A DNA stretch of 64,000 nt, from the NCBI GenBank assembly GCA_958296125.1, contig OY282444.1, forward strand, positions 3,443,623-3,507,622, in the 5' to 3' direction. The translations under genes and the position numbers were made by a program. How positions within the stretch are numbered: the first letter of the stretch is position 1; each line of letters begins with the position of its first letter. The notes below the pieces were generated by a model. That model ran no database searches, was not told the DNA's origin, and saw only the letters and a program-made list of their open reading frames with translations. The DNA comes from an uncultured Poribacteria bacterium (lineage in GTDB: Bacteria > Poribacteria > WGA-4E > PCPOR2b). Below are positions 55,518 through 63,857 of this stretch, piece by piece.

Positions 55518-56687
55518 ATGAAAAACAGAGCGCGTTCAACCGTTTTGCTTGTTATTTGTGTTGTAACATTTGTGATGATTATGGGTTTTTCACTTGCCGG
55601 GTGTGAAAATAGGAATGAGATTAAAATCGCTGTTGCGGGCCCCTTTACCGGCTCTGTTGCTGCTTTTGGGGAGATGATTAAGCGTGGCGCGGAGCTCAAG
55701 GCAAAAGAGATTAATGCTGCCGGCGGTGTCAACGGCAAAACACTAACGCTCCTCTTTGAGGACGATACCGGCAAAGAGAAAGAAGCCGGTTTAGTTGCAC
55801 AGCGAATCGCCGGCAATCGGCAGATTCTCGCAGTCGTTGGACACTTTAATAGTGCCTGCTCGTTAGCCGGCAAACCCATCTATCAACGTGCTGGTATTGT
55901 TGAACTCTCGCCTGGATCGACCAACATCAAGGTTTGTGAGGGAAGTGACTGGACATTCAGAAATTTGTACCGTGACGATTTTCAGGGCGCGTTTGTAGCG
56001 AAGTATATCAAAAATGTATTGGGGGAAAATCAAAAAGTCGTCATCTTTTTTGATAACGATGACTATGGCCGCGGGCTTAAAGACGGTTTTACTGAGGTTG
56101 CTGAGCAGCTTGGGCTTGAAATCATTGCAACTGAGGCCTACGATCGCGATAACACCGACTTTAAGGCGCAGTTGACAAGCATTAAGGCGAAGCACCCGCA
56201 TCTGATTTTTATCTCAGGGTTGTATAGTCAAGCGGGCTTAATCGCCTCACAAGCCCGTGAAGCAGGCATCACCGCCCAACTCTTTGGGGCGGACGGCGTT
56301 GATTCCCCGGATTTCCTTGAAATCGCCGGCGATGCCGCCGAAGGCACGTATGTCTCAACACCGTTTGTGTTTGAACTCGGCGGCCCCGAAGCCCAAAGGA
56401 TGGCGATGGCGTTCGAGGAAGCGTATGGGATCGCTCCCGATACTTGGGCAGCATTAACTTATGATGCGGTCGGCATGATTGTCGAAGCAATTGAAAAAGG
56501 CGGCGAAAATCGAAAAGCCATTCGCGACCATTTAGCGTCAATCAACAGTCCTGAAAAAGGATACACCGGCATCACGGGCTTAACCTATTTTGATGAGAAT
56601 GGGGATTGCGCCAAGCCCGCTTATGTCAAGATTGTCGAAAATGGTCGGTTTGTCCCTGCTGCGGAGCAGATGCTTGGTATGGAATAA
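55518..56687 (+). CDS. livK: Branched-chain amino-acid ABC transporter substrate-binding protein LivK (lipoprotein)
   Basis: The protein has 389 residues. The lipoprotein signal ends FSLAGCEN. The mature protein shows the type-I periplasmic binding fold: IKIAVAGPFTGSVAAFGEM, GAELKAKEINAAGGVNGK, LFEDDTGKEKEAGLVAQRI, VVGHFNSACSLAGKPIYQ, VVIFFDNDDYGRGLKDGF and a C-terminal GITGLTYFDENGD. It captures a branched-chain amino acid or similar ligand (amide, urea) for LivHMGF. It is the first gene of the livKHM group; livGF lie 4.7 kb upstream. Confidence 0.9.
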   Translation: MKNRARSTVLLVICVVTFVMIMGFSLAGCENRNEIKIAVAGPFTGSVAAFGEMIKRGAELKAKEINAAGGVNGKTLTLLFEDDTGKEKEAGLVAQRIAGNRQILAVVGHFNSACSLAGKPIYQRAGIVELSPGSTNIKVCEGSDWTFRNLYRDDFQGAFVAKYIKNVLGENQKVVIFFDNDDYGRGLKDGFTEVAEQLGLEIIATEAYDRDNTDFKAQLTSIKAKHPHLIFISGLYSQAGLIASQAREAGITAQLFGADGVDSPDFLEIAGDAAEGTYVSTPFVFELGGPEAQRMAMAFEEAYGIAPDTWAALTYDAVGMIVEAIEKGGENRKAIRDHLASINSPEKGYTGITGLTYFDENGDCAKPAYVKIVENGRFVPAAEQMLGME

Positions 56688-56789
56688 CGGAAAAGGCGGT
56701 GGATCCCGTTCCGTTTGCTTTGTTTCGCTGCCTCGCCCGTTGATATTTAACATTCTACACATAACGTCGTAGGAGCTTTTAATTCCTTT

Positions 56790-57683
56790 ATGTCCCAATT
56801 CCTGGAACAAATCATTAACGGACTCGTGCTTGGTGGCATCTACGCCCTAATTGCTGTGGGCTATACGATGGTCTACGGTATCATCCAACTCATTAACTTT
56901 GCACACGGCGAGATTTTTATGTTCGGCGCGTATTTTGCCTTCTTATGCGTCACGACCTTCGGCCTTTCATTTTGGTTCGCATTACCACTCAGTATGAGCC
57001 TGTGCGCCTTAATGGGGATGCTGATTGACTTTGTCGCCTATCGCCCCCTCCGGAACGCGCCACGCCTCTCCGCACTAATTACCGCCATCGGTATGTCCCT
57101 GGTGCTGCAAAATCTCGCTCGATTGATTTGGGGGGCAAGATGGCGTAAATTTCCCGCCGAAGCAACACCGGCACTTTTGACGGGAAATGCAATCTCCCTA
57201 CCCGGTGGGGCGCAGGTTTCATTCCTTGATATCTTCATTATCCTGCTCGCCGTAGGTTTAATGATTGGCTTAAATCGGTTAATTTATTTAACGAAAATTG
57301 GAAAAGCGATGCGAGCTTGCGCTCAAAACCGCGTCGCTGCGAACCTGATGGGAATCGATACAAATCGCGTAATCACCGTGACATTTGCAATCGGGTCTGC
57401 ACTCGGAGCCGTTGCCGGTGTCATGGTTGGGCTGCGTGAGGTCACCGAGCCAGCAATGGGCTATTACAAAGGGGTCGCAGCATTTGCTGCTGCGGTACTC
57501 GGCGGGATTGGCAATATTACCGGTGCCATGTTTGGGGGTGTGATACTCGGTGTTGCTGAAGCCCTCGGTGCGGGCTACATTTCATCCGAATACCGCCTAG
57601 CGATTGCTTATATCATCATGATTCTCGTCATTATCTTTCGTCCATCTGGCCTGCTGGGGAAATCAACAACGACGCGGGCTTAA
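56790..57683 (+). CDS. livH: Branched-chain amino-acid ABC transporter permease LivH
   Basis: The protein has 297 residues with about eight membrane helices. Its LivH hallmarks are the start FLEQIINGLVLGGIYALIAVGYTMVYGIIQLINFAHGE in shorter blocks, IGKAMRACAQNRVAANLMGID (the EAA-like coupling helix), and AFAAAVLGGIGNITGAMFGG. It forms the transmembrane channel with LivM. The ribosome site is weak (AGGAG about 15 nt upstream). Confidence 0.92.
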   Translation: MSQFLEQIINGLVLGGIYALIAVGYTMVYGIIQLINFAHGEIFMFGAYFAFLCVTTFGLSFWFALPLSMSLCALMGMLIDFVAYRPLRNAPRLSALITAIGMSLVLQNLARLIWGARWRKFPAEATPALLTGNAISLPGGAQVSFLDIFIILLAVGLMIGLNRLIYLTKIGKAMRACAQNRVAANLMGIDTNRVITVTFAIGSALGAVAGVMVGLREVTEPAMGYYKGVAAFAAAVLGGIGNITGAMFGGVILGVAEALGAGYISSEYRLAIAYIIMILVIIFRPSGLLGKSTTTRA

Positions 57684-57686
57684 TAC

Positions 57687-57815
57687 ATTGACGCGCTCCC
57701 AAACCTAAAGCGTTGGGATTCCTACCCGTTCCGTCCCGATCTCGCAAGTTCTGCACAGCGGAATCCTCGCTTCGCGGGACATGAATGTTTGGGTTTTAGA
57801 CCTAAAGGATTTTTG
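57687..57815. mobile_element. Short IS200/IS605-like hairpin element (element C)
   Basis: The left end is ATTGACGCGCT, hairpin CCCAAACCTAAAGCGTTGGG (57698-57717), then ATTCCTACC, matching the left end of element B. The right end TGTTTGGGTTTTAGACC (57787) matches the orphan end at 8979. The 19-bp repeat 57762-57780 lies inside. The element occupies nearly the whole 142-bp livH-livM gap, inside the operon. Confidence 0.45.
57762..57780 (-). repeat. 19-bp inverted dispersed repeat, copy 2
   Basis: AATCCTCGCTTCGCGGGAC is the exact reverse complement of 46947-46965. Confidence 0.5.
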
Positions 57816-57825
57816 ATAAACACAC

Positions 57826-58815
57826 ATGCGGAAAAAACTATTCGCCGCCAGAACCATGATTCTCATTGGGGTGGTGTGCCTACCACTGCTGACCTACGGC
57901 GCAGACCGCTTTGTTGATTTGTTATATGAACGCGATATCGTCTTACCAATACCAAGCGGAGACTACATCCTCCGAATCGTGGTGCAGGCTTGCCTTTATA
58001 TGCTGCTGGCTTTGGGACTTAACATTGTGCCGGGATTCACAGGGTTACTCGATTTGGGATATGTCGGATTTTACCTCGTCGGTGGATATACAGCCGGCCT
58101 GCTGATGGCGAGACTCGGTTGGAGTTACTGGATTGCGCTGCCGCTTGCTGCAATTCATGGCGCAATCTGGGGCTTGTTACGCGGAGCCCCTACCTTGCGG
58201 CTGACAGGAGATTATTTTGCCATCGTGACCTTCGGTTTCTCGGAACTCCTTTTCCGAGTTGTGAAAAATGAGGAGTGGCTCATCGGTGGTCCCAACGGGT
58301 TTGTAAATGATATTCCACCCCCTACCCTTTTTGGATATGAGATTTACAAATATTGGCAACAGTATTACCATATCCTAATTTTGTTGGCTCTCACAATTCT
58401 GGTTGTGTATCGTTTACAGAACTCGCGTGTCGGCCGAGCATGGGCGGCAATTCGGGAGGACGAGCGAGCGGCAGAGAGCATGGGGATTAATCTCCGCGAG
58501 TACAAATCCATCGCCTTCGCAGTCAGCGCGGCAATCGGTGCCGTTGGCGGGGCGTTCTTCGCACAGTTTCAGGTCAATATCAGCGCGGGCGCGTTTGAAT
58601 TTTGGGAATCCATTTTCATCTTGTGCATGATTGTGCTCGGTGGGGTGGGAAACATCAAGGGCGCAATTATCGGAGCTGGCATTCTAGCGTCTTTAGGGGA
58701 ACTCCTACGCATCATCCCATTCGGCGGTGCGCGCTATCTAATCTTTGGCATCATCCTAATCCTTATAATGCGTTTTCGTCCGGCAGGATTGCTATCAATG
58801 AGACAGCAAAACTAA
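57826..58815 (+). CDS. livM: Branched-chain amino-acid ABC transporter permease LivM
   Basis: The protein has 329 residues. Typical LivM segments are LLALGLNIVPGFTGLLDLGYVGFYLVGGY (in part), GAPTLRLTGDYFAIVTFGFSE, the GGPNGF motif, GRAWAAIREDERAAESMGIN (coupling helix) and MIVLGGVGNIKGAIIGA. About nine to ten membrane helices are visible. It pairs with LivH. A hairpin element fills the gap to livH, so read-through of that structure is required for operon expression. Confidence 0.92.
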   Translation: MRKKLFAARTMILIGVVCLPLLTYGADRFVDLLYERDIVLPIPSGDYILRIVVQACLYMLLALGLNIVPGFTGLLDLGYVGFYLVGGYTAGLLMARLGWSYWIALPLAAIHGAIWGLLRGAPTLRLTGDYFAIVTFGFSELLFRVVKNEEWLIGGPNGFVNDIPPPTLFGYEIYKYWQQYYHILILLALTILVVYRLQNSRVGRAWAAIREDERAAESMGINLREYKSIAFAVSAAIGAVGGAFFAQFQVNISAGAFEFWESIFILCMIVLGGVGNIKGAIIGAGILASLGELLRIIPFGGARYLIFGIILILIMRFRPAGLLSMRQQN

Positions 58816-59283: not shown

Positions 59284-60531
59284 ATGCATTATCCAACCGA
59301 ACAATCGGCAGTACCAGGAACAGATCATAGCTTTGATGCCAACGTTTATACCCGTCTTGGTGTTAAACCGTTCATCAATGCCAACCTCCCTTTCACGTTT
59401 TTGAGCGCAACGGTGGTATGGCCAGAGGTGCGCCGGGCGATTGATGAAGCAGCACAATATATGGTTGACGTGGTCGAATTGCAGCGGGGAGTGGGCAGGC
59501 GGCTTTCGGAGATTTCGGGCGCGGAGTCCGGCATGATTTCCTCCGGTGCCGCCGGATCGATGGCACTTGCGACCGCAGCGTGCATCGCGGGCACCGATCC
59601 AGAAAAAATTTGGCAACTACCCCACACGACCGGTCTCAAAGATCAGGTCATCATGTGGGGGGGGCGAAGTATTTTCGATAGTGCGCTGCGACTCGTAGGG
59701 GGCAAACCGGTAGTCGTTAATTCGCTGGACGCATTGCGCCACTCTATTAACGATAAAACTGCCATGCTTTGCACAGGATACTCCGCCGATCCAGATCCAG
59801 TGGACCCGCCGCCCTTAGCAGAAATGGTATCGATTTGCAAGGCTGCGGGTGTTCCTGTATTCGTTGACGCAGCCGGCGGTATCCCTCCCATTGATAACAT
59901 CCGAAGATATGCCCGTATGGGTGTAGACCTGTACGGGTTTAGCGGAGGCAAGGGGTTGCGCGGACCTCAAGCTAGTGGGCTTTTGCTCGGACGGCAGGAC
60001 CTGATTGAAGCTGCGCTTGCCAACGCCACACCGGTTGAGGGGGCGGTATGCCGTGCAATGAAGGTCGGCAAAGAGGAAATTATCGGTTGTATGGCGGCTC
60101 TTGAAAAGTGGCTGACTATTGACCTTGATGCACTGTATCGCGAGCAAACGGAGAGACTGAAAACAATCGCAGCGTTCGTGGAATCCGTACCCGGTGTTGA
60201 AACCAAGATTGAAGTCCGTACCGGCAGTAACCGCTTTATGCAACTGATTGTGAACTGGGACGAAGAGGCTTTTGGGTTGACCGTGGACGAGTGTGGGCAG
60301 GAGCTGCGAGCAGGTGATCCGCCTATATCAGTGCTATGTGGTTACAACCCCTACGTGACGCGAGTTCGCGAATTCTACCCTCCAACCTCTACCGATGGGC
60401 AACCTGTCAAACGTGAGAGCAGCCCGTTGACGGCCTTCTCTCTCAGCCTTCAACCCGGCGAGGCAGAGATTGTGGGAAAACGCCTTTGCGAAGTTTTGAT
60501 GGCGGCATTTAATAGGAATTTGTCACATTAA
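59284..60531 (+). CDS. SelA-like PLP-dependent enzyme
   Basis: The protein has 415 residues with an AAGGAG site. Fold-type-I PLP features: VYTRLGVKPFINANLP at the start, GAESGMISSGAAGSMALATAA for cofactor phosphate, VPVFVDAAGGIPP with the ring Asp, and the Schiff-base Lys in YGFSGGKGLRGPQASGLLLG. This resembles selenocysteine synthase relatives such as D-glucosaminate-6-phosphate ammonia-lyase, and lacks the N-terminal tRNA-binding domain of true SelA. It should act in sugar-acid or amino-acid catabolism, not in selenocysteine formation. Confidence 0.75.
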   Translation: MHYPTEQSAVPGTDHSFDANVYTRLGVKPFINANLPFTFLSATVVWPEVRRAIDEAAQYMVDVVELQRGVGRRLSEISGAESGMISSGAAGSMALATAACIAGTDPEKIWQLPHTTGLKDQVIMWGGRSIFDSALRLVGGKPVVVNSLDALRHSINDKTAMLCTGYSADPDPVDPPPLAEMVSICKAAGVPVFVDAAGGIPPIDNIRRYARMGVDLYGFSGGKGLRGPQASGLLLGRQDLIEAALANATPVEGAVCRAMKVGKEEIIGCMAALEKWLTIDLDALYREQTERLKTIAAFVESVPGVETKIEVRTGSNRFMQLIVNWDEEAFGLTVDECGQELRAGDPPISVLCGYNPYVTRVREFYPPTSTDGQPVKRESSPLTAFSLSLQPGEAEIVGKRLCEVLMAAFNRNLSH

Positions 60532-60586: not shown

Positions 60587-63340
60587 CTAACGCCGCCGAA
60601 TCGTGAGGTTCAAGGGGAAAAACAGCAGGACAGCATAGAATGCAAGCATCCACTGCCACTCTTTGAAGAGCGGAGCAAAGCCGAATATTCGTTGCGTCGT
60701 TGGTAGATAGACTATTGACAGATGTAACACAGTGCACGCAAGAAGGGTGAAGCAGAAGGGAGGGTTTGCCTTTATTCTTTGGAAGATGGACTCCCAAGAG
60801 AGGCGATGACACTGGAAGTTTGAAATCAACAACCCCAAAATCAACGTCGTACACGCTACCGTTTGGGCCGCGGCATGAGGGGTCGGCTGCGTTACTGCTG
60901 ACTCCACAAATGTAAGAATAAAGCTAAAAATAGTCATTGACGCAATGACAAGGCTGCGCAGCAGCACATCGTAGAAATCGGCTCGTGATAGGAAGGGTGG
61001 AATCTCTTGAGGTTTGCTATACTTGAAATCGCCACGGATGCGATCATACCCCAACCCCATCAGCGGTATGAGATTTACAAGCAGATGAACCCAGAATAGC
61101 TGGAGCAAGCTCAACGGCATGGGCAAGTTACGTAGCGGAGGGAAAAAGAAGCCGATATACGGTAACGCGCTTCCAATGATAAGCGTGAGAAGCTGTGCAA
61201 GGCTACAAGAGAGCAGCCAACGCATTGAACTTCTCAAGTTGATATAAGATTCACGGACCTGACGTATGAGGCTCGCGATGACATCAAAACCATCCTTAAA
61301 TACGAGACACGCTGCGCGGTGTTGAACAATATGCGATGAGCGAACAGCGGAGGCAAAACTGACATCGGCCATTCGCATTGCCCGTAAATCGAGAGGTGAT
61401 TTTCCCCAAAATCCGACGGAATGGCCAAGGCGTTTTAGATGTTGCACCAGATTCTGTTTCTGCTCGGCGGAAGGACGGCAATATACAAGTAAACGATTCA
61501 CGATCGATTCATAGTGCTCATCACTGAACTCCGCCAAGTCTTCTTGTGTAACAACACTGTATTTATCCTGAGTAATGGAAAGTTCTTTGGCAATATCTAG
61601 AGCGGCGTTCCGGTCTTTATCTGTTATCGTGATAATTTTAAGCCCCGCGTCAAGACAGGATTGGATAACCTCCTTTGAATCTGGGTACTCTAGCTCCGCA
61701 AAGGTGATGAACCCTAAAAAGGTCATGTTATGTTGCGTTTCATCCGGCGAGGGGGGAGTGTTCAGGTTTCGATAAGCGACAGCGAGGGTCCGGGGCCTGC
61801 TGTTTGATAGGTATTCAATTGCCCGCTGTGTCAACTCCTTCTGGTCGAAGTTCATGTAATTGGCTGTTCCATCGAGCTGAATGCGATGACAAACTTGTAG
61901 GATTGTCTCTGCATCCCCGAACATCAGCTTTAAGAACTTTCCATCTTGGAGAGCGAAAACAAGCGTTTTGTATGGGTGTTCTGACGTTGGAAGCTGCTCG
62001 TCAATCTTAGTGAAAGACTCATTGTAACGCTCCAAATCAAATCCAATCCTCTCGGCAATTCGATTTATTGCGTTACCGATGCTTGCCTCCGCTACAGTCG
62101 AAATTCCGGCGAGATTGTTCCTACCGCCATTGCTAGCAAAGCGGCTCGCGAGCAGAATTAACAACGGGAATTCTGGCGGCAGCTCTGAATCGGGGAACGT
62201 AGTTGAAATTGTCCCTGTCTCAATCTCATCTGATATATGTTCATTATGGGATTCCAGCCAAGCTTCCCACCCCTCTTGATCAACGAGACTTTGACCTACA
62301 AAAATATGCGAGGCAGCCATCTCTTCCTTCATAAAATTCCCAACTTCATCAACACAAGCTGCCGTAAGTTTGCTCAATCTCTCTATATTGACCAGATTCC
62401 GAATTGCGACCCCCTTCTCTAGGAGTCTGTAAGCGTGTTGAGCGAGGATTGCTCGACTCGTTGGAGCAATCCCTTCGGGAATTGAAGCAACGACAAAACC
62501 GAATCCGAGAAACAGGAGTTCACCCCAGTGGGTATTTTGATCTGGAAGCAGAAACGCTACGATAACCGCCACCCCTCCCAATATGCCCCCGGCAATTCGG
62601 AAAGAGTCGTAAAAAAAACCCATCTGCACTTCCGCTTCGGTATCTAGGTCAACAATCGCAGGCGCACATTGGTCGGATTTGTTTATCTCCAATTGATCGC
62701 CTATCCCAACAACGATTGCCCGCGCTTCGCCTTCAAGGACATACGTTCCAGCAAAGATCATATTACTCTGCTTTTCAGGTGGCAAGTCCGGTGTCGTAAT
62801 CTCTTCGTCAGTTTTCTGTGCATACGTTGTTGTTCCAAATACCGGTGCTTCATCGACAACCAAAGCCTCAGCCTCAACAACGCGGGCATCAGCGGCAATA
62901 TAGTCTCCTTCCTTCAGGAGCAACAGATCACCGGGCACAATCGCCGCAGGGGAAAGTTTGATAACGCGCTCATCTCGAATAACGGATACCCTGACCTCTA
63001 AATGCGTTCTAATAGACTGAAGCTGGTGGTGGGTTCTGCCAGCCTGAATGAATCGCCAGAGGACATGAAAACATAGGAGGGAGGAAAACACTAAGATCTC
63101 GTGGATCGCACGTTGGAAGTAGAAAAGCGTGCAGATAACAACGAACAGGAGAATGACCGTTGAATTGGTAAATTGCTTCAGTAAGAGAATGAAAAGCGAA
63201 CTTTCATGAGATCGCAGAATTTCGTTGATCCCATATTTGCTACTTTGGGCAGTTGCTTCCTTACTACTTAACCCACGTTCGAGGTCTGTCTTGAATTCGT
63301 GTAGAAGATGTGGAATTTTTTGGGTGTACCAATTCGACAT
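60587..63340 (-). CDS. P-type cation ATPase homologue with most catalytic motifs lost
   Basis: The protein has 917 residues, the full length of a P2-type (SERCA/PMR1-like) pump, with the cation-ATPase N domain (GLSSKEATAQSSKYGINEI), about ten membrane helices and the TM4 motif IPEG (287-290). The catalytic sites are altered: TGES is VVDE (161-164), DKTGT is DEVGN (331-335, phospho-Asp kept), KGA is FGD (475-477), TGD is TDK (573-575) and GDGVND is GKSPLD (646-651). The hinge Asp equivalent to SERCA D703 is therefore Lys647. The frame is intact throughout, so this is a maintained pseudo-pump or a pump of unusual chemistry. Confidence 0.85.
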   Translation of the reverse strand: MSNWYTQKIPHLLHEFKTDLERGLSSKEATAQSSKYGINEILRSHESSLFILLLKQFTNSTVILLFVVICTLFYFQRAIHEILVFSSLLCFHVLWRFIQAGRTHHQLQSIRTHLEVRVSVIRDERVIKLSPAAIVPGDLLLLKEGDYIAADARVVEAEALVVDEAPVFGTTTYAQKTDEEITTPDLPPEKQSNMIFAGTYVLEGEARAIVVGIGDQLEINKSDQCAPAIVDLDTEAEVQMGFFYDSFRIAGGILGGVAVIVAFLLPDQNTHWGELLFLGFGFVVASIPEGIAPTSRAILAQHAYRLLEKGVAIRNLVNIERLSKLTAACVDEVGNFMKEEMAASHIFVGQSLVDQEGWEAWLESHNEHISDEIETGTISTTFPDSELPPEFPLLILLASRFASNGGRNNLAGISTVAEASIGNAINRIAERIGFDLERYNESFTKIDEQLPTSEHPYKTLVFALQDGKFLKLMFGDAETILQVCHRIQLDGTANYMNFDQKELTQRAIEYLSNSRPRTLAVAYRNLNTPPSPDETQHNMTFLGFITFAELEYPDSKEVIQSCLDAGLKIITITDKDRNAALDIAKELSITQDKYSVVTQEDLAEFSDEHYESIVNRLLVYCRPSAEQKQNLVQHLKRLGHSVGFWGKSPLDLRAMRMADVSFASAVRSSHIVQHRAACLVFKDGFDVIASLIRQVRESYINLRSSMRWLLSCSLAQLLTLIIGSALPYIGFFFPPLRNLPMPLSLLQLFWVHLLVNLIPLMGLGYDRIRGDFKYSKPQEIPPFLSRADFYDVLLRSLVIASMTIFSFILTFVESAVTQPTPHAAAQTVACTTLILGLLISNFQCHRLSWESIFQRIKANPPFCFTLLACTVLHLSIVYLPTTQRIFGFAPLFKEWQWMLAFYAVLLFFPLNLTIRRR

Positions 63341-63409
63341 GGTTCAAGATTCTTATCTGAAAACTTGGCTTGTCTGAAAACTTGGAAAGTATAGGAAATA
63401 GAGCGGCTA

Positions 63410-63451
63410 TTGACATACTCCCGCCCCCTAAAGGGTGGGGATTCTTACCTG
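63410..63451. mobile_element. Orphan left-end hairpin of the IS200/IS605-like family
   Basis: TTGACATACTCCC, then GCCCCCTAAAGGGTGGGG and ATTCTTACC; this nearly repeats the left end of element A at 543-587. No matching right end is clear. It lies between the P-type ATPase start and the rpmA terminator. Confidence 0.5.
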
Positions 63452-63526: not shown

Positions 63527-63562
63527 AAAATAAAGAAAGCCTTGCCTAATGACGAGGCTTTC
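63527..63562 (-). terminator. Rho-independent terminator of rplU-rpmA
   Basis: On the minus strand: GAAAGCC, loop, GGCTTTC (63562-63535) followed by TTTATTTTC. It is 29 nt after the rpmA stop. Confidence 0.8.
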
Positions 63563-63590: not shown

Positions 63591-63857
63591 CTAGAAATCA
63601 GGGCGTTTCGAGTAAACGCTAACTTTTTTGCGGAATTTATCCTTCCGCTCAAACTTGACATAGCCATCAATCGTTGAGAAAAGGGTGTAATCGTTTCCGA
63701 CCCCAACGTTTTTTCCGGGGTGGAGGTGCGTGCCGCGCTGTCGGACCAGGATACTTCCAGCGGTCACAGTGCTCCCAGAAAACTGCTTAATCCCAAGCCG
63801 TTTACCGATACTATCTCGTCCATTGCTCGTGCTGCCGCCGCCTTTTTTATGAGCCAT
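63591..63857 (-). CDS. rpmA: 50S ribosomal protein L27
   Basis: The protein has 88 residues. [20 protein letters not shown] is the universal L27 start, without the cleavable N-terminal extension seen in Firmicutes. [19 protein letters not shown] and [17 protein letters not shown] follow. L27 contacts the peptidyl-transferase centre. The gene overlaps the end of rplU by 11 nt and has GGAGGG upstream of the ATG. Confidence 0.97.

What the first reader, a model, noticed from the sequence alone, without database searches (positions are those of the whole stretch)
60587..63340. Full-length P-type ATPase homologue with nearly all signature motifs replaced
Only the phospho-Asp (Asp331) and the TM4 IPEG are kept. 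TGES, KTGT, KGA, TGD and GDGVND are changed to VVDE, EVGN, FGD, TDK and GKSPLD. The 917-codon frame has no break. A maintained pseudo-pump could act as a channel, sensor or regulator of a real pump.
Basis: partly seen in the sequence, partly recalled or inferred. Interest (0 to 1): 0.6.

Follow-up and report, generated by a model that had tools for sequence, protein, structure and literature searches.

The report
Poribacterial dead-pump P-type ATPase family
Bacteria of the phylum Poribacteria have kept, as a full-length gene under selection, a membrane ion pump whose ATP-burning and ion-binding residues are nearly all lost, so the protein must be doing some other job that is not yet known.

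Summary
In detail: window 60587-63340 (-) is an unbroken 917-aa P2-type (SPCA/SERCA-like) ATPase homologue with its catalytic motifs replaced. One motif was misread: TGES aligns with FGTT, not VVDE. The gene is not decaying. In the host's order, 69 of 72 genomes carry a full-length, stop-free orthologue (two more have fragments at contig ends). In all 69 the TGES Glu, DKTGT Lys, KGA Lys, TGD Gly and first GDGVND Asp are gone; the phospho-Asp survives in only 25. Ion-site acids E771 and D800 are 0/69. dN/dS is 0.07-0.17. Pseudo-pumps form one clade (99/96). The 40 best hits outside the phylum are canonical pumps. The genome has no other P2 pump, only a P1B heavy-metal ATPase, so 'regulator of a real pump' is unsupported. 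The gene usually follows homoserine kinase; in the window's genus it has moved away and stayed intact. Best reading: an ancient, vertically inherited pseudo-P-type ATPase working without catalysis, most likely as a membrane scaffold or receptor. Catalytic death is strongly supported; the positive function is inference.

The parts
60587..63340 (-). 917-aa pseudo-P2-type ATPase (membrane pseudoenzyme)
62828..62839 (-). residues 168-171 FGTT, aligned with TGES of the actuator domain (dephosphorylation Glu 0/69 in the order)
62471..62482 (-). residues 287-290 IPEG in M4 (kept here; PEG Glu kept in only 8/69 orthologues)
62336..62350 (-). residues 331-335 DEVGN, aligned with DKTGT (Asp kept here, 25/69 in the order; Lys 0/69)
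61913..61921 (-). residues 474-476 FGD, aligned with KGA of the N domain (Lys 0/69)
61616..61624 (-). residues 573-575 TDK, aligned with TGD (Gly 0/69)
61388..61405 (-). residues 646-651 GKSPLD, aligned with GDGVND (first Asp 0/69; last Asp 69/69)
60590..61270 (-). M5-M10 membrane block (residues 691-917), where 8 of the 17 newly fixed residues of the order lie (C712; D791, Q843, R846, W849, R855, P909, N911)
63388..63416 (-). promoter-like match ATGTCA-N17-TATACT upstream of the gene (9 of 12 matches; the region holds no more such matches than shuffled sequence)
   Evidence: (L088 8011-8039)
63535..63562 (-). GAAAGCC...GGCTTTC inverted repeat followed by T-rich sequence after rpmA, terminator-like
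   Evidence: sequence read directly; not reported by the scan
63591..63857 (-). rpmA (ribosomal protein L27), upstream neighbour on the same strand, named from its sequence only

Best explanation
SHOWN BY SEQUENCE: a P2-type ATPase homologue that lost the residues for ATP binding, phosphorylation, dephosphorylation and cation coordination early in Poribacteria, and has since been inherited vertically as one full-length gene under purifying selection. It is a pseudoenzyme (my probability that it does not run a P-type catalytic cycle: 0.95). INFERRED: it kept the 10-helix, three-domain architecture because that architecture is a binding surface. The A domain and the M5-M10 bundle, with newly fixed residues enriched in M7-M10 and the loop between M8 and M9, hold a protein partner, so that it acts as a static membrane scaffold or receptor rather than as a transporter (probability of scaffold or receptor over the other functions: about 0.45). 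In known pumps accessory subunits bind on the M7-M10 side (Na,K-ATPase beta subunit, CDC50; from general knowledge, not tested here).
For: Over 69 order genomes plus 8 class/phylum genomes: D703, K515, K352, E183 and G626 are 0/69; reference pumps keep 13 of 13 catalytic positions while order members keep 1-4. Ion-site E771 0/69, D800 0/69. Adenine-site F487 and K492 mostly replaced. dN/dS 0.07-0.17 for pairs with dS 0.1-1.3. One clade with 99/96 support, motif columns left out; 100% SH-aLRT in a wider tree. Conservation has moved: P domain 0.43 against 0.60 mean pairwise identity in canonical pumps, with 31 canonical invariants lost; A domain 0.47 against 0.42, 19 invariants kept and 4 lost; M1-2 0.25 against 0.42; M7-10 0.40 against 0.30, holding 7 of 17 new invariants (Fisher p = 0.011). 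No second P2 pump in the genome. The gene stays intact after leaving the thrB locus in the window's genus.
Against: No partner, ligand or expression is known. The usual neighbours (Ycf48-like protein, aminotransferase, homoserine kinase) do not point to a membrane complex. The M7-10 enrichment is modest (p = 0.011, small counts, related sequences, not corrected for the choice of domains). D651 and K/R628 of the P domain are almost invariant, so ligand binding there cannot be excluded. No usable structure model was obtained.
Confidence: 0.5

Rival explanations
1. Lipid-handling or lipid-sensing protein: the degenerate pump holds lipids, or lets them pass, in its membrane groove, as suggested for human TMEM94, which has the P-type fold without a demonstrated cycle.
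For: TMEM94 cryo-EM shows a P-type-like fold, no TGES, no measured ATPase activity and a phosphatidic-acid-like lipid between M3, M4, M5 and M7 (PMC12134183). The window protein's membrane core is nearly free of acidic residues, E289 being the only one in the ten predicted helices.
Against: No relation to TMEM94 was tested; M3-M4 are poorly conserved (0.34 against 0.45 in canonical pumps).
Confidence: 0.17
2. Ligand or nucleotide sensor: the cytoplasmic headpiece still binds a small molecule without hydrolysing it and passes the state to the membrane domain or a partner.
For: D651 (69/69) and K/R628 (68/69) in the HAD-like P domain are retained; the N domain is as conserved as in canonical pumps (0.31 against 0.32).
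Against: The KGA Lys is 0/69, F487 and K492 are mostly replaced, and the Mg2+-site Asp is 0/69.
Confidence: 0.15
3. Passive ion channel or facilitator: with the ATP-driven gates gone, the membrane domain conducts ions.
For: Ten membrane segments are kept, and M5-6 are as conserved as in real pumps (0.49 against 0.50).
Against: Cation-site E771 and D800 are 0/69 and E309 is 8/69; M1-M4, the entry path in P2 pumps, are relaxed.
Confidence: 0.1
4. Regulatory subunit of another P-type pump in the same cell.
For: Pseudoenzymes often regulate active paralogues (general knowledge).
Against: No other P2 pump was found in the genome; the only other P-type ATPase is a P1B heavy-metal pump about 3.2 Mb away.
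Confidence: 0.04
5. Still an active ATPase or pump using rebuilt, unconventional chemistry.
For: Some proteins called pseudoenzymes turn out to be active; whether human TMEM94/ERMA is active is disputed (PMC13322241 against PMC12134183).
Against: Even the nucleophile Asp is replaced by N, S, Q or H in 44/69 orthologues, and the K352 position is Glu in 67/69, a charge reversal in the active site.
Confidence: 0.03
6. Decaying pseudogene caught while its frame is still open.
For: Many signature residues are lost.
Against: 69/72 order genomes intact, dN/dS 0.07-0.17, residues newly fixed across the order.
Confidence: 0.01

Closest known systems
P2A Ca2+-ATPases: SPCA/PMR1 (PDB 8iww, 7yag) and Listeria LMCA1 (6zhf)
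   Same: Same domain order; the family profile matches SPCA1 over positions 12-878 of 903, E 2.8e-108; all 22 aligned members match the PMR1-type NCBIfam model.
   Different: Catalytic motifs and Ca2+-site carboxylates lost; score far below the family cut-off (254.8 against 798.3 bits).
Human TMEM94/ERMA
   Same: Ten-helix P-type-like protein without TGES, reported to lack ATPase activity (PMC12134183).
   Different: Eukaryotic ER protein whose activity is disputed (PMC13322241); no sequence relation was tested here.
Mammalian ATP13A5
   Same: A P-type ATPase for which no autophosphorylation was found (PMC5837089).
   Different: Keeps the typical motifs according to that paper; the negative result may be due to expression.
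FUPA families of uncharacterised prokaryotic P-type ATPases (e.g. FUPA24, mycobacterial CtpH/CtpI)
   Same: Functionally uncharacterised prokaryotic members of the superfamily (PMC3573892).
   Different: That paper reports the characteristic motifs in the mycobacterial members; the present family lacks them.

Membership tests
P2-type ATPase, as homologue | Full-length homology: N-terminal domain, A domain, HAD-like P domain with inserted N domain, C-terminal membrane domain | tested here: met
   PF00690, PF00122, PF00689 over cut-off, PF00702 below cut-off; profile match to SPCA1 over 12-878
P2-type ATPase, as enzyme | DKTGT phosphorylation site | tested here: not met
   DEVGN in the window; Lys 0/69; Asp 25/69
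P2-type ATPase, as enzyme | TGES dephosphorylation motif | tested here: not met
   FGTT; Glu 0/69
P2-type ATPase, as enzyme | KGA, TGD and GDGVND nucleotide/Mg2+ motifs | tested here: not met
   FGD, TDK, GKSPLD; K515, G626, D703 all 0/69
P2-type cation pump | Ion-site residues in M4, M5, M6 | tested here: not met
   E309 8/69, N768 0/69, E771 0/69, N796 1/69, T799 22/69, D800 0/69
P2-type ATPase, as enzyme | ATPase activity with aspartyl-phosphate intermediate | not testable with these tools
   needs purified protein
Pseudoenzyme | Clear homology to an enzyme family with catalytic residues lost | tested here: met
Pseudoenzyme | Kept by selection (intact orthologues, low dN/dS) | tested here: met
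Pseudoenzyme | Non-catalytic function demonstrated | not testable with these tools
   no partner or phenotype known
TMEM94-like pseudo-pump | Common descent with TMEM94 | not tested
   only the general resemblance described in PMC12134183 was considered

The most novel reading that the evidence does not exclude
A bacterial family of catalytically dead P-type ATPases, conserved across most of a phylum, that has outlived the active P2 pump in its own lineage and has become a new kind of membrane receptor or scaffold: a prokaryotic pseudo-P-type ATPase family of single origin and great depth.
Probability: 0.5. Interest if true: 0.75.

Novelty: new variant of a known kind. Interest (0 to 1): 0.62.

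Why it matters
P-type ATPases are textbook enzymes defined by their phosphorylated aspartate. Dead members seem hardly documented: no paper in the library searched holds both 'P-type ATPase' and 'pseudoenzyme', and the one structural case found, human TMEM94, is disputed. A single-origin, vertically inherited family without pump chemistry, with dozens of species at graded divergence, is a natural experiment on what the pump fold can do without ATP. It is also an annotation trap: the gene passes the general P-type ATPase domain models and may be labelled a cation-transporting ATPase.

Tried and rejected
Decaying pseudogene: rejected. Several independent losses of catalysis: not favoured, since pseudo-pumps form one clade with the motif columns left out and again in a wider tree. 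Obligate operon with thrB: considered because Ycf48-like protein, aminotransferase, ThrB and pseudo-pump stand in this order in most loci, but in the window's genome the three-gene block sits at 1.76 Mb and the pump gene at 3.50 Mb. Degenerate relatives outside Poribacteria: the 40 best hits in other phyla are canonical for TGES, DKTGT, TGD and GDGxND (L165 was first read in the wrong frame and corrected); L156 has a variant of KGA. The closest plasmid-borne homologues are about 25% identical; the 12 fetched keep the motifs, with TGEA and KGS variants in one.

Full report
What was checked. The ORF at 60587-63340 (minus strand) is a 917-codon frame with ATG start and no break. It matches the three P2-type Pfam domains over their cut-offs (Cation_ATPase_N, E1-E2_ATPase, Cation_ATPase_C), while the HAD hydrolase and N-domain models fall below theirs, which already hints that the catalytic part is what has changed. 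The family profile aligns over almost its whole length with human SPCA1 (8iww, E 2.8e-108) and with Listeria LMCA1. Ten hydrophobic peaks lie where M1-M10 are expected.

Motifs. Aligned with 12 canonical reference pumps from plasmid records, the window protein reads FGTT for TGES, IPEG, DEVGN for DKTGT, FGD for KGA, TDK for TGD, AEQK with K628 (SERCA K684), and GKSPLD for GDGVND. Kept besides D331 and IPEG are K628 and D651 (SERCA D707) and structural residues of the A domain.

Orthologues. The host is a Poribacterium: the nearest named records, 79-81% identical, are 'Candidatus Poribacteria' MAGs. A first search found the gene in 57 of 58 relatives, all of the same order. A profile search of the phylum (84 genomes) found it essentially full-length and free of stops in 69 of 72 genomes of the order; G007 and G071 have fragments at contig ends, and G050 (81% complete) shows none. 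Elsewhere it is full-length in G061, G062, G065, G066, G067, G068 and G069 (same class) and G058 (same phylum), and in pieces in G060, G063 and G064. G059, the other genome outside the class, showed only a canonical P2 pump (L081), and G058 has canonical pump genes besides the pseudo-pump. The tally (83 of 84) therefore includes G059 although its match is canonical.

State of the catalytic residues in the 69 order genomes, as number that keep the canonical residue (SERCA numbering): E183 0, D351 25 (Asn in 41), K352 0 (Glu in 67), K515 0, D601 0, G626 0, D627 6, K684 10 (Arg in 58), D703 0, N706 11, D707 69. Ion-site residues: E309 8, N768 0, E771 0, N796 1, T799 22, D800 0. Order members keep 1 to 4 of 13 catalytic positions, reference pumps all 13, and the outlying G058 and G062 keep 6.

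Selection and descent. Pairwise dN/dS (Nei-Gojobori) is 0.07-0.17 for pairs with dS from 0.1 to 1.3. In a maximum-likelihood tree with the motif columns removed, pseudo-pumps are one clade with 99/96 support, G058 lying nearest to the canonical pumps and the class families next. One loss of catalysis followed by vertical descent is the simplest account. A wider tree with the best hits among 302 genomes of other phyla again separates the pseudo-pumps with 100% SH-aLRT; one row of that tree, L165, was a wrong reading frame and is canonical when read correctly. All 40 of those outside hits have TGES, DKTGT, TGD and GDGxND.

Where conservation went. Against canonical pumps, the P domain falls (mean pairwise identity 0.43 against 0.60) and loses 31 canonical invariants; M1-2 and M3-4 fall (0.25 against 0.42, 0.34 against 0.45); the N domain is unchanged; the A domain is kept (19 canonical invariants kept, 4 lost); M5-6 are unchanged; M7-10 rise (0.40 against 0.30). 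Of 17 residues newly fixed in the order, 7 are in M7-10 (Fisher p 0.011). This is the main basis for preferring a binding role of the C-terminal membrane block. It is suggestive, not proof: counts are small and the sequences are related.

Surroundings. In most loci the gene follows a Ycf48-like BNR protein, a class I aminotransferase and the GHMP kinase that I take for homoserine kinase ThrB, all on the same strand, often with short gaps (start codons only estimated). In the window's genus it lies instead downstream of rpmA, with a terminator-like repeat and a promoter-like match between them (the region holds no more promoter-like matches than chance). The Ycf48-aminotransferase-ThrB block is intact at 1.76 Mb of the host genome. 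So the gene survived relocation and does not need the thrB context. The only other P-type ATPase found in the genome is a P1B heavy-metal pump, and no canonical P2 pump was found there.

Reading. The sequence evidence shows a pseudoenzyme: no known route to ATP binding, phosphorylation or cation binding remains. What it does is inference. I favour a scaffold or receptor held in the membrane, with lipid handling, ligand sensing and passive conduction as rivals. Precedent is thin: human TMEM94 has the fold, no TGES and no measured ATPase activity in one study (PMC12134183), while another argues that it is an Mg2+ ATPase (PMC13322241, abstract only).

Limits. The structure model failed. Genomes outside the phylum were sampled, not searched exhaustively. 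Most relatives are MAG-like assemblies in many contigs. No expression data were found; the main text of the poribacterial transcriptome paper does not contain the word ATPase (PMC5087111).

Noticed in passing
L038, L039, L044-L054 and others; L106 3695-6897 (G000:C1 about 1.7607-1.7639 Mb): A Ycf48-like BNR protein, a class I aminotransferase and a homoserine-kinase-like GHMP kinase stand together across much of the phylum, including the window's genome; why a Ycf48-like protein sits with amino-acid biosynthesis genes is unclear.
   Followed up: partly
window 55518-58815 (+): Three consecutive genes that look like part of a branched-chain amino-acid ABC transporter (substrate-binding protein and two permeases), by sequence impression only.
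   Followed up: no
window 59284-60531 (+): A 415-aa gene that looks like a PLP enzyme (SelA-like) lies convergent with the pseudo-pump, with 55 bases between the two ORFs.
   Followed up: no
L083 (G060:C104) and L082 (G063:C15): In two class-level MAGs the pseudo-pump looks broken: one in-frame TGA in G060, two frames in G063; assembly errors or true decay.
   Followed up: no
L077 against L078-L080 (all G058): An outlying genome holds the pseudo-pump beside canonical pump genes, perhaps a record of the stage before the active pump was lost.
   Followed up: partly
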